Positions 61,941 to 64,000 of a DNA stretch of 64,000 nucleotides are shown in pieces. Position numbers and translations under genes: made by a program. Each line of letters opens with the position of its first letter. Position 1 is the stretch's first letter. A model generated the notes under the pieces. That model was not told the DNA's origin and searched no databases. It saw only the letters and a list, made by a program, of their open reading frames with translations. The stretch comes from Fidelibacterota bacterium (GTDB lineage: Bacteria > Pseudomonadota > Alphaproteobacteria > Rhodospirillales > Rhodospirillaceae). The DNA is taken from the NCBI GenBank assembly GCA_947476625.1, contig CANJRA010000001.1, positions 124,001 through 188,000 of the forward strand, given 5' to 3'.

Positions 61941-62415
61941 CTTGCGTTACGCCAGAACGCGAGGGTGCGCGGCGAGATAACGCCCGCACCTTCGTGAGCG
62001 GCGATATCCTCGAGACACGCGCGCAGGCCAGCCGCTTCGGCCTCTAATCCTGCGTATTTCAGAAAAAGTAAAATGCGCGTTAGGCGTAGATGGTTATGGT
62101 TAGCGGGTTCGAGCCAATGGGCCCGCGCGCGATGGTATTCCCTCTGCGAACGAGTCCAAGAAACTCCATCATAAGATCAAGCGAGCGGCGCACGCGCGCC
62201 CGAAGATCGGCGTCAGCGCGAAACGCCGCCTGATCAGCTGTCGATAATATCGGGGCGTCGGGATTGAAGCGGCTGGGGTCCGGCAGCGGAAAGAGCCATT
62301 GAATAAAATCGTGAACCATTTCGAGCCGGCGGCGATCCCAGGCCCAGATTTCGTCGATCGTGCGCCCAGCGGAATCTAAACCGGCGCCGCGATAAAACGC
62401 GAGAAGTGCGGACAT
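61937..62415 (-). pseudogene. OGFr-domain-like protein, frameshifted
   Basis: From 62415 the frame begins LLAFYRGAGLDSAGRTIDEI then WDRRRLEMVHDFIQWLFPLP, matching the bacterial opioid-growth-factor-receptor-like domain (a motif W..xLE..HDxIQWLFP). It shifts at a CGCGCGCG run, 62124-62131; removing one CG gives AHWLEPANHNHLRLTRILLF and RACLEDIAAHEGAGVISPRT to TAG 61937-61939. Those residues fit the usual C-terminal part of the family. Restored length is about 159 residues. Function is unknown in bacteria. Confidence 0.75.
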
Positions 62416-62573: not shown

Positions 62574-63035
62574 TTAAGCGACGTTCGCGAGAACCGGGGC
62601 TTCAGCCGGCGCCGCGCTCGCAATCGTTACGCGGCGAGGCTTCAAGGCTTCGGGCACAACGCGCTTCAACTCGATATGGAGAAGGCCGTTCTCAAAGCGC
62701 GCGCCGGAGACTTGGATATGGTTCGCGAGCTCGAATTTGCGCTCGAACGAACGCCCGGCGATGCCGCGGTAGAGATAGGCCGCCTTATCGGGGTCTTGCG
62801 GGGCTTTGCCGCGCACCGTGAGGGTATTGTTCTCGACTTGGACATCGAGATCATTCTCGCCAAACCCAGCCACGGCAAAAGTGATGCGGTAATTGTCTTC
62901 GTCGGCTTTGACAATGTTATAGGGCGGGTACGCAAAATGGGTGTCGTCGAGACGGGTCGCGGCGTCGAATACACGCGCCAGATTGTCGAAGCCAACGGAT
63001 GCACGGAAAAGTGGGGAAAGGTCGAATGTACGCAT
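62574..63035 (-). CDS. Small heat shock protein (Hsp20/IbpA type)
   Basis: From ATG 63035, preceded by GGAGGA, 153 residues: N-terminal FDLSPLFRASVGFDNLARVF, alpha-crystallin core YNIVKADEDNYRITFAVAGF with ENTLTVRGK-like strand and KFELANHIQVSGARFENGLL, then the C-terminal basic stretch. This is the alphaproteobacterial class A/IbpA-like family, a holdase chaperone for unfolded proteins. Its leader contains a ROSE-like thermometer and an RpoH-type promoter lies before it, both fitting heat induction. Confidence 0.95.
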   Translation of the reverse strand: MRTFDLSPLFRASVGFDNLARVFDAATRLDDTHFAYPPYNIVKADEDNYRITFAVAGFGENDLDVQVENNTLTVRGKAPQDPDKAAYLYRGIAGRSFERKFELANHIQVSGARFENGLLHIELKRVVPEALKPRRVTIASAAPAEAPVLANVA

Positions 63036-63157
63036 AGTGATATCCTCCAATGAGCAATACCGAAGGCGCGTTTAACGGGCCATCACCGTGATGGACCATA
63101 GGGCCGCGCCGTTATGCCGCGAACGCAACAGACCCCGTTCGGGCATCCGTTGCCCGA
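63036..63157 (-). ncRNA. ROSE-like RNA thermometer in hsp20 5' leader
   Basis: On the minus strand the leader has a first hairpin TCGGGCA/TGCCCGA (63139-63157), a middle nested hairpin with outer GGCGCG/CGCGCC (63065-63110) and inner CCATCA/TGATGG, and a last hairpin ATTGCT loop CATTGG AGGAT (63042-63058) that buries the AGGA of the ribosome site. UUGCU facing AGGA with a bulged G is the ROSE hallmark, known from rhizobial hsp20 leaders. Melting on heating would open translation. Confidence 0.78.
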
Positions 63158-63160
63158 TCC

Positions 63161-63188
63161 ATCTAAGAAATGCCGCAGGGCTTTCAAG
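63161..63188 (-). promoter_or_regulatory. RpoH (sigma-32)-type promoter for hsp20
   Basis: On the minus strand CTTG (63185-63188) and CTTAGAT (63161-63167) are 17 bp apart. This matches the alphaproteobacterial heat-shock consensus CTTG-N17/18-CYTATNT except one base. Transcription would begin near 63155, at the top of the ROSE-like leader. Confidence 0.65.
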
Positions 63189-63206
63189 CCCCGGAAAAGA
63201 ATTTTT

Positions 63207-64000
63207 TTAACCGGGGCGCCCGGAGCGGCGGGTTACCACCCACGCCAGAACAGCGGCGGTAGCTACCAGCGTGGAGGCCAATAAAAAGGGCGCGCCCGCC
63301 ATTTGCACATCTTTCCCGGCGATGGCGCGCGAGAAGGTGAGCGTGAACAGCGACGGACCAATCATGCCGGTAATACCTAGAATACTACTGAGCGCCCCCT
63401 GAAGCTCGCCTTGCTCGGTAGGGGCGACATGACGGGTCATGAGCGCTTGAGACGCGGGGCCGTATAACCCCCACAGCGCAGCCACGGGGATACCAAGACA
63501 GAAGATGAGACCGGTGGGTGCGAGGCCGTAGATCGCAAATCCCACAACCGCGCAGGACAGGCCGATCAGCAGCGTGGGACGTTCGCCGAGGCGTTTGACC
63601 GTCGGCTTCACAAAGACGCCCTGCACGGCGACGATCGCGACGCCGAACCCGGCCATGGCGAGGCCGACAGTGGTTTCGCTCCAGCCGTAGCGGTAGGCGG
63701 TATAGAGCACAAACACGCTGGGCAACGCGTTGTGAGACAGCGTGTAGAGAAAGTGCACCATCGCAAGGCCGGCAAGTTCGGTATGCGAGCGCAACAACTT
63801 CAGCGCACCAATCGGGTTGGCGCGCCGCCAGGAAAACGGCTTACGCCTTTCCGGCGGCAGGGATTCCGGCAGAACAAACAGGCCGTAGAGCGCGTTGGTC
63901 AGGCTTAAGCCGCCAGCCACCCAAAACGGCAAATGCAGATCGATGCCGCCGAGTACACCGCCCAGCGCCGGCCCCAGAATAAAGCCCAGCCCAAAGGCGA
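63207..64000 (-). CDS. MFS transporter (TCR/Tet-like), 5' partial
   Basis: The gene runs off the window's right edge; the visible part covers the last ~260 residues of a 12-helix MFS protein. FAFGLGFILGPALGGVLGG is motif C of the drug-antiporter group, and FGVAIVAVQGVFVKPTVKRL then ERPTLLIGLSCAVVGFAIYG lies at the central loop. Related to Tet(A)-type proton/drug antiporters; substrate is not known. It is on the same strand as hsp20, with the RpoH promoter 20 bp beyond its stop. Confidence 0.87.
   Translation of the reverse strand, partial: AFGLGFILGPALGGVLGGIDLHLPFWVAGGLSLTNALYGLFVLPESLPPERRKPFSWRRANPIGALKLLRSHTELAGLAMVHFLYTLSHNALPSVFVLYTAYRYGWSETTVGLAMAGFGVAIVAVQGVFVKPTVKRLGERPTLLIGLSCAVVGFAIYGLAPTGLIFCLGIPVAALWGLYGPASQALMTRHVAPTEQGELQGALSSILGITGMIGPSLFTLTFSRAIAGKDVQMAGAPFLLASTLVATAAVLAWVVTRRSGRPG

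What the first reader, a model, noticed from the sequence alone, without database searches (positions are those of the whole stretch)
63036..63188. Candidate ROSE RNA thermometer plus RpoH promoter controlling hsp20
The hsp20 leader (about 120 bases) has three stacked hairpins; the last one, ATTGCT-CATTGG-AGGAT, pairs the ribosome site with a UUGCU segment and a bulged G, the same core as rhizobial ROSE elements (established knowledge). A CTTG-17-CTTAGAT promoter fits the alphaproteobacterial RpoH form. Together they give transcriptional and translational heat control in 150 bp. ROSE is known in Rhizobiales; whether this lineage belongs there is not clear, so it may extend the range.
Basis: partly seen in the sequence, partly recalled or inferred. 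Interest (0 to 1): 0.72.

Follow-up and report, generated by a model that had tools for sequence, protein, structure and literature searches.

The report
Heat-sensing RNA on hsp20 and rpoH
The start of this small heat-shock gene's message folds like a known type of RNA heat sensor, and tracing its relatives shows the same kind of element in front of the heat-shock master switch gene rpoH in this genome and in dozens of related ones, which we did not find reported.

Summary
The hsp20 leader forms three helices; the last pairs the ribosome site GGAGG with UUGCUC and bulges one G, the ROSE core. An alpha-RpoH-like CTTG-N17-CTTAGAT promoter lies upstream. Rfam ROSE (RF00435) matches at 29.1 bits, E 0.007, below its gathering score of 45. 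Pairs covary in 17 relatives, and a model of these leaders finds 31 of 63 held-out hsp20 loci. It works like ROSE. The lineage looks Rhodospirillales-like, but ROSE there is already in print (Gluconobacter), so "extends the range" is weak.

The surprise lies outside the window. The same element precedes rpoH (sigma-32) in this genome. A model of such leaders has 77 places in 199 genomes of the order: 63 before rpoH (21 families), 11 before hsp20; 129 genomes have none. In 11 of the 63 it covers rpoH's own start; in 52 it lies 99-237 nt upstream, mostly before a short leader ORF. Across the order that ORF pairs with its own rpoH ribosome site better than with others'; in the window's genus it does not. 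Azospirillum brasilense Sp7 seems to carry a direct version. Nothing was measured; heat function is inferred.

The parts
63185..63188 (-). -35-like CTTG of an alpha-RpoH-type promoter
   Evidence: sequence; CTTG with spacing 17 picked (from spacings 16-19) in 18 of 18 leaders; consensus recalled
63161..63167 (-). -10-like CTTAGAT
   Evidence: 7-mer with A at position 4 and T at position 7 in 18 of 18, first base C in 17 of 18
63127..63151 (-). P1 hairpin ACGGAUGCC...GGGGUCUGU, bulged G at 63144
   Evidence: 9 pairs, 5 with two-sided changes, 98.1% of cells paired
63105..63110 (-). P2 long-range helix, 5' arm GGCGCG
   Evidence: 96.1% of cells paired; innermost pair GU:7, GC:5, AU:4, other 2; no pair scored with a two-sided change
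63065..63070 (-). P2 long-range helix, 3' arm CGCGCC (encloses a variable hairpin)
63039..63061 (-). P3 Shine-Dalgarno hairpin with ROSE core: UUGCU 63057-63053, bulged G 63055, SD GGAGG 63048-63044
   Evidence: 98.1% of cells paired; one pair with types GU, AU, GC, UA
62574..63035 (-). hsp20 (153 aa), start ATG 63035-63033
   Evidence: Pfam PF00011 HSP20, E 1.2e-19

Best explanation
The hsp20 leader is a ROSE-type RNA thermometer behind an RpoH-type promoter. At growth temperature P3 holds the Shine-Dalgarno sequence in a weak stem with a bulged G and U-G/U-A pairs; heat loosens P3 and ribosomes load, while RpoH raises transcription. P1 and P2 are stable folding supports. Shown: sequence, conserved pairing, promoter-like boxes and their conservation. 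Inferred: melting, translation control, RpoH dependence. The same kind of element precedes rpoH in this genome (outside the window) and in 63 of 199 genomes of the order, so thermometers appear to act at two levels of one cascade: on the sigma factor and on its target. In 11 of the 63 rpoH loci the element covers rpoH's own start; in 52 it lies further upstream, mostly over the start of a short leader ORF whose translation presumably frees rpoH (inferred).
For: RF00435 end-to-end match, 29.1 bits, E 0.007. Pair conservation and covariation in 18 hsp20 leaders, 0 of 500 shuffles. Held-out test: R1 has a match at E<=0.11 upstream of hsp20 in 31 of 63 loci, 22 at E<=0.01. R1 in 41 relatives: 26 places in 22 genomes, 21 hsp20 and 5 rpoH. 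The own rpoH leader folds into P1-P2-P3 with bulged G in P1 and P3 (z -1.5, 15 of 200 shuffles as good) and stands before rpoH at G000:C16. R2, built only from rpoH leaders: 77 places in 199 genomes of the order: 63 rpoH, 1 contig end with an RpoH-like N-terminus, 11 hsp20, 2 others; core UUGCU in 59 and UCGCU in 4 of the 63. Class sample of 385 genomes: 65 places; of 29 loci classified 24 hsp20, 4 rpoH (one, G057, also in the order set), 1 unassigned. So the two leaders look like one RNA class.
Against: Below Rfam's gathering score; no ROSE at gathering in 40 of 80 hsp20 loci or in 20 rpoH-type loci. 129 of 199 genomes of the order and 324 of 385 of the class have no R2 match at E<=0.01, among them 16 listed genomes of the window's own family (strict filters lose weak matches). 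Five of the 31 R1 matches stop short of the SD hairpin (L024, L032, L039, L059, L068). Folding energy not unusual. Nearest-neighbour folding does not predict opening between 30 and 42 C (SD region unpaired 0.05 to 0.10 in the window). P3 is nearly invariant, so its pairing rests on conservation more than covariation (1 of 9 pairs in hsp20, 0 of 10 in the rpoH alignment). No expression or probing data.
Confidence: 0.86

Rival explanations
1. The leader is a structured mRNA stabiliser or ribosome-standby element with no thermal switch; the SD hairpin merely sets a low basal rate.
For: Folding models predict little opening with temperature; P1 and P2 are conserved.
Against: The U(U/C)GCU:SD core with the bulged G, whose deletion lowers heat induction in a tested oppF element (PMC11342760, passages), is kept at hsp20 and rpoH, both heat-shock genes, in many families.
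Confidence: 0.1
2. The conserved P3 stem is a protein or small-RNA binding site and its near invariance reflects that ligand.
For: The P3 stem is nearly invariant while the loop varies.
Against: The stem buries the SD, and the hsp20 SD change GGAGG to GGAGA keeps a standard pair with the invariant U (UG in 9, UA in 9).
Confidence: 0.05
3. For the rpoH copies with a leader ORF: the ORF relays the heat signal by Rho-dependent attenuation, mRNA stability or reinitiation, not by an anti-SD.
For: In the window's genus the leader ORF does not pair preferentially with its own rpoH SD (17 leaders, duplex 4126 of 5000, helix score 4587 of 5000); melting the ORF in silico raises SD accessibility only slightly (0.37 to 0.45 over 66 leaders); the ORF overlaps rpoH in L127.
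Against: Across the order it does pair preferentially (33 deduplicated leaders, duplex 9 of 5000, helix score 47 of 5000; spacer control, duplex only, 2436 of 5000).
Confidence: 0.4

Closest known systems
ROSE elements (Rfam RF00435), first known from rhizobial small heat-shock genes
   Same: SD hairpin with UUGCUC and bulged G, first hairpin with a bulged G, 5'UTR of a small heat-shock gene (model alignment)
   Different: Scores 29.1 against gathering 45; P2 is a long-range helix around a variable hairpin; lineage outside Rhizobiales by its nearest relatives (inference)
ROSE predicted before hsp20 of Gluconobacter oxydans 621H (PMC5756330, passages)
   Same: Rfam ROSE before hsp20 outside Rhizobiales
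   Different: A prediction from Rfam, without a detected start site there; that table row names only hsp20
Short ROSE-like elements of Pseudomonas ibpA (PMC3669281, passages)
   Same: ROSE core and a stable first hairpin before a small heat-shock gene
   Different: Two hairpins only
ROSE-like and ROSE-G thermometers before ABC transporter genes (PMC11342760, PMC12857270, passages)
   Same: U(U/C)GCU or CUGCU core against the SD
   Different: Other targets; the term rpoH does not occur in PMC12857270 and was not searched for in PMC11342760
E. coli rpoH mRNA thermosensor (recalled)
   Same: RNA control of sigma-32 translation
   Different: Structure lies largely within the coding region; no ROSE core, no leader ORF (recalled)
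[quoted passage not shown]
   Same: Thermometer on a sigma factor gene
   Different: fourU type, another sigma factor

Membership tests
Rfam RF00435 ROSE | score at or above the curated gathering score (45 bits) | tested here: not met
   29.1 bits, E 0.007
ROSE-type thermometer (working class) | U(U/C)GCU pairs with the Shine-Dalgarno sequence with a bulged G | tested here: met
ROSE-type thermometer (working class) | two to four hairpins, stable first hairpin | tested here: met
   P1, P2, P3; RNAalifold itself placed P1 and P3, P2 was set by hand
ROSE-type thermometer (working class) | 5'UTR of a small heat-shock gene | tested here: met
   PF00011 E 1.2e-19
ROSE-type thermometer (working class) | helices kept by compensatory change | tested here: met
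   6 pairs, 12 cells, 0 of 500 shuffles; five of the pairs in P1, one in P3
ROSE-type thermometer (working class) | melts and lets ribosomes bind at heat-shock temperature | not testable with these tools
   needs probing or reporter fusions; folding models show little change
Rfam RF01832 ROSE_2 | score at or above gathering (65 bits) | tested here: not met
   18.2 bits, E 0.13
Alphaproteobacterial RpoH promoter | CTTG-17/18-CYTATNT-like boxes (consensus recalled) | tested here: met
   CTTG-17-CTTAGAT, one mismatch (position 5) to the recalled consensus; boxes recur in 18 of 18 leaders
Alphaproteobacterial RpoH promoter | transcription depends on RpoH | not testable with these tools
   no expression data

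The most novel reading that the evidence does not exclude
In the window's order the heat-shock master regulator is itself under a ROSE-type thermometer, usually through a relay: heat opens the start site of a short leader ORF, and ribosomes on that ORF displace an anti-Shine-Dalgarno segment from the rpoH ribosome site about 100-240 nt downstream. With the hsp20 element this makes a cascade with RNA thermometers at two levels.
Probability: 0.35. Interest if true: 0.85.

Novelty: new variant of a known kind. Interest (0 to 1): 0.62.

Why it matters
The hsp20 element alone is one more ROSE-type thermometer. The rpoH copies would mean that in a good part of one alphaproteobacterial order temperature is read directly on the sigma-32 message by the same RNA motif that reads it on its target, with two architectures (direct, and gated through a leader ORF). 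How heat induces sigma-32 synthesis in alphaproteobacteria is, as far as I recall, much less studied than in E. coli, and Azospirillum brasilense Sp7 would be a cultured strain in which to test it.

Tried and rejected
Rfam at gathering score: nothing in the window, in 40 of the 80 hsp20 loci (one tRNA only) or in 20 rpoH-type loci; at E<=2 in five rpoH-type loci, ROSE at 30.6 bits in L101 and ROSE_3 at 22.1 bits in L106, both below gathering. RF00435 over the own genome at E<=0.001: no match, and no control genome rang either, so uninformative. Plain folding energy: not informative (z -1.0, z -1.5). Predicted opening from 30 to 42 C: small. RNAalifold pairing of the start-codon region with the P2 3' arm competes with P2; not pursued. 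P3 of 25 rpoH leaders: 98.8% paired, but only two two-sided changes, both in L106. Melting the leader ORF in silico: mean unpaired probability of the rpoH SD 0.37 to 0.45 over 66 leaders, rise above 0.2 in 14, fall above 0.2 in 0; weak, because removing partners tends to raise it anyway. Left out there: L129 (stop inside the match), L120, L144, L228, L240 and L241 (no start codon found by the script), and L139-L142 and L165 as repeats; one search left out L237 as well. Own-versus-cross duplex test: positive for the order set (42 leaders, 0 of 5000; 33 after removing near-duplicates, 9 of 5000), negative for the window's genus (17 of its 18 leaders, 4126 of 5000), mixed for six others (duplex 99, helix score 623 of 5000). 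Leader-ORF peptide: HLHPTA-like by eye in 13 of 18 genus leaders, same DNA out of frame in the own genome and L112, different in L121, L125, L126, so a peptide function was not adopted. A chance control for start codons behind the element was not run. Named plasmid-borne rpoH (36 records): of six regions read, R2 finds the element before rpoH in two and not in four; two weak minus-strand matches in the latter (E 0.018 and 0.15) were set aside.

Full report
OBSERVATION. On the minus strand the window reads CTTG (63188-63185), 17 bases, CTTAGAT (63167-63161), a leader of about 120 nt and the ATG of a 153-residue protein (63035), which Pfam names HSP20 at E 1.2e-19. Rfam at gathering finds nothing in the window. 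On 63020-63210 alone the best match is RF00435 ROSE on the right strand from model end to model end, 29.1 bits (gathering 45), E 0.007 in a search of 4227 families; ROSE_2 follows with 18.2 bits, E 0.13. Plain folding gives the SD hairpin, but the energy is not unusual (z -1.0).

RELATIVES OF THE HSP20 LEADER. A protein search in named genome contigs kept the best 80 of 157 loci. L001-L018 are close (67-86% identity). Their labels: Rhodospirillaceae 6, Alphaproteobacteria 2, Caenispirillum 1, uncultured bacterium 2, and Candidatus Marinimicrobia 7, which I take for mislabelled bins. Of L019-L080, 50 of 62 bear names that I place in Acetobacteraceae or Rhodospirillales; the rest are labelled Proteobacteria (8), Alphaproteobacteria, Aureimonas, Solirubrobacterales and Acidobacteria. 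The lineage is therefore Rhodospirillales-like rather than Rhizobiales (inference from labels and best hits; no species tree was made). In W and L001-L017 the promoter-like boxes recur: CTTG, spacing 17, a 7-mer with A at position 4 and T at position 7 in 18 of 18, C first in 17 of 18; the script chose the best of spacings 16-19. The RpoH consensus is recalled.

STRUCTURE AND COVARIATION. The 18 leaders were aligned without coding sequence. For P1, P2 and P3 together 97.6% of cells pair (shuffles 93.9), 6 pairs and 12 cells have changes on both sides (shuffles 2.0 and 2.6), covariation score 0.188 against 0.116; none of 500 shuffles reaches any of these, and the slid versions fall far below. 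P1 carries most of it (5 of 9 pairs); P2 has no pair with a two-sided change; in P3 one pair covaries (GU, AU, GC, UA), and the pair of the SD with the second U of UUGCU is UG in nine and UA in nine. The sequences are related, so the shuffles overstate significance, as the tool says. The structure given to the tool was set by hand from the folds; RNAalifold by itself placed P1 and P3. A covariance model of the leaders (R1) searched 63 loci that it was not trained on (L018 holds no leader): 31 have a match at E<=0.11, all within about 160 nt upstream of hsp20, 22 of them at E<=0.01; five of the 31 (L024, L032, L039, L059, L068) stop short of the SD hairpin. In the own genome R1 reports one match, the window's; 150 of 1767 candidates were scored, and the own rpoH leader was missed.

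HOW IT WORKS (hsp20). Two layers: RpoH-type transcription, and translation gated by P3. Works like ROSE: yes, on anatomy. Member of Rfam's ROSE family: not at its curated score; that score also misses the 40 related hsp20 loci tested, so the failed test may say more about the model's reach than about the element. ROSE in print outside Rhizobiales: Gluconobacter oxydans hsp20 carries an RF00435 prediction (PMC5756330, passages; no start site was detected there); more than 40 candidates in alpha- and gammaproteobacteria (PMC3669281, PMC4166951, passages); Nautella of the Roseobacter clade (PMC3230580, passages). So the hsp20 element is ordinary in kind.

THE RPOH COPY. R1 in 41 relatives gave 26 places in 22 genomes. 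Fifteen are upstream of hsp20 by translation, six more are the window itself or lie on contigs already found by hsp20, and five (L101, L103-L106) lie upstream of rpoH (positions confirmed). The own genome has its rpoH at G000:C16 (90% identical to the L104 protein), and its leader carries the element; it folds into P1, P2 and P3 with the bulged G in P1 and P3 (15 of 200 shuffles fold as well). The L104 protein has sigma-70 regions 1.2, 2, 3 and 4 in Pfam and is called RpoH because tblastn with it finds genes annotated rpoH. In the window's genus a match to rpoH at E<=1e-80 was found in 18 of 19 genomes, and 18 of 18 leaders carry the element. A sigma-70-like TTTACG/TAATAT pair stands just upstream of P1 in the own leader (by eye).

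SPREAD. R2, built from 18 rpoH leaders, was run on 199 genomes of the order. On its alignment 17 cells change on both sides (0 of 500 shuffles), but the number of such pairs, 6, is reached by 20 of 500 and the number of pair types by 125 of 500; P3 is invariant in 9 of 10 pairs. At E<=0.01 R2 has 77 places in 70 genomes; 129 have none, among them 16 listed genomes of the window's own family (the listing of empty genomes is capped and strict filters lose weak matches). The 77 were all classified: 63 upstream of RpoH, 1 (L163) at a contig end with an RpoH-like N-terminus, 11 upstream of Hsp20 (one, L244, covers only the 5' part of its element), 2 (L168, L226) upstream of a small ORF that I recall as DUF1150-like but whose tested part gave no Pfam match. 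About two false places would be expected at that threshold, if the rough E-values hold. The 63 lie in 63 genomes of 21 families (family labels copied). In 385 genomes of the class there are 65 places in 61 genomes. Thirty of these have loci: the own rpoH leader and 29 others, which are 24 Hsp20, 4 RpoH (one, G057, is also in the order set) and 1 unassigned; 35 were not classified. A model trained on rpoH leaders thus finds hsp20 leaders elsewhere: one RNA class, two targets.

TWO ARCHITECTURES. Among the 63 rpoH loci of the order the rpoH start estimated by script lies directly behind the element in 11 and 99-237 nt away in 52, none between (starts, where G057 appears twice, as L196 and L204, and a few direct starts fall inside the element). 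In the distal type the element's SD would serve a short ORF. Over all 63 a start codon lies 8-22 nt behind the SD in 61, ATG in 58; of the two exceptions L233 has an ATG slightly closer and L228 has none (no chance control was run). In the genus-and-family set the start is ATG in 23 of 24 and TTG in one, L125. Most of these ORFs have 8 to 57 codons; L125 runs on into rpoH and in L237 the script finds one codon only. They differ between families. In the window's genus 13 of 18 read HLHPTA-like by eye, but the own genome and L112 have that stretch out of frame.

THE RELAY. The 45 nt behind the start codon of the leader ORF were paired with the rpoH SD region. Order set (42 of the 52 distal leaders; 5 repeats and 5 without a usable ORF left out): own -11.86 against cross -10.51 kcal/mol, 0 of 5000 permutations; after removing near-duplicates (33) -11.46 against -10.21, 9 of 5000; by helix score 47 of 5000. 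The spacer just upstream of the SD, as control by duplex energy, shows nothing (-9.66 against -9.65, 2436 of 5000). Six other leaders: 99 of 5000 by duplex, 623 of 5000 by helix score. The window's genus (17 of 18 leaders): no preference, 4126 of 5000, which speaks against the anti-SD step there. Relatedness within families is only partly handled. So the anti-SD relay is supported for the order and not for the window's genus, where Rho, stability or reinitiation remain open.

NAMED STRAINS. In plasmid records R2 finds the element directly at the start of an rpoH paralogue of Azospirillum brasilense Sp7 (NZ_CP012915.1, L250:494-558, 19.1 bits, E 0.00066 in 12 kb; the record has no gene annotation, RpoH by tblastn) and A. 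thermophilum (NZ_CP029358.1, L247:501-585, 18.9 bits, E 0.0007), in both with UCGCU. The scores are low. Four other plasmid rpoH regions read lack it.

IN PRINT. Ten searches of the held open-access library (several listings capped) and passages of eleven papers showed no ROSE-type element before rpoH. PMC4166951 (2014) calls ROSE always associated with small heat shock genes; later passages add ABC transporters (PMC11342760, PMC12857270). PMC11182007 reports a fourU element before a sigma-70 gene and asks whether other sigma genes are so controlled. PMC4843759 examined rpoH1 and rpoH2 upstream regions of Rhizobiales for promoters; the terms thermometer, thermosens- and untranslated do not occur in it. 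PMC3989490 discusses ROSE for small heat-shock genes and rpoH apart. Subscription papers, among them Waldminghaus 2005, were not seen.

VERDICT. hsp20: ROSE-type element confirmed on anatomy, ordinary kind, confidence 0.86 that it is a thermometer. rpoH companion: the conserved element is well supported; its thermal function is inferred; the relay is a hypothesis with mixed evidence.

Noticed in passing
G000:C16:21276-21369 (-), loci L139/L107 (outside the window): The own genome's rpoH leader carries the same three-helix ROSE-type element followed by a 29-codon leader ORF.
   Followed up: yes
L250:494-558 and L247:501-585: Plasmid-borne rpoH genes of Azospirillum brasilense Sp7 and A. thermophilum have a ROSE-like hairpin directly at the start codon (low-scoring model matches).
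   Followed up: partly
window 62080-62415 (-): The ORF after hsp20 matches OGFr_N (opioid growth factor receptor region, E 3.6e-11); similar ORFs follow hsp20 in L092, L093 and L097, where they are 168-200 aa against 111 aa here.
   Followed up: no
leader ORFs of L107, L110-L126: In 13 of 18 members of the window's genus the rpoH leader ORF reads HLHPTA or close (by eye), yet in the own genome and L112 the same DNA stretch is out of frame.
   Followed up: partly
L106 and L123 (G012): One relative has two rpoH genes, each with a ROSE-type element; the L106 copy seems to have two hairpins only.
   Followed up: no
L168, L226: ROSE-type element directly before a small ORF of unknown family (DUF1150-like by memory; the part of L168 tested gave no Pfam match).
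   Followed up: no
window 63065-63070 and 63030-63034 (-): On the hsp20 leader alignment RNAalifold pairs the 3' arm of P2 with the start-codon region, which would compete with P2; a possible second switch.
   Followed up: no
L153, L155, L164, L201: Very short rpoH leader ORFs ending in DLSPI or NLSPN resemble the Hsp20 N-terminus MRTFDLSPLFR (by eye), as if the element had been copied together with the first hsp20 codons.
   Followed up: no
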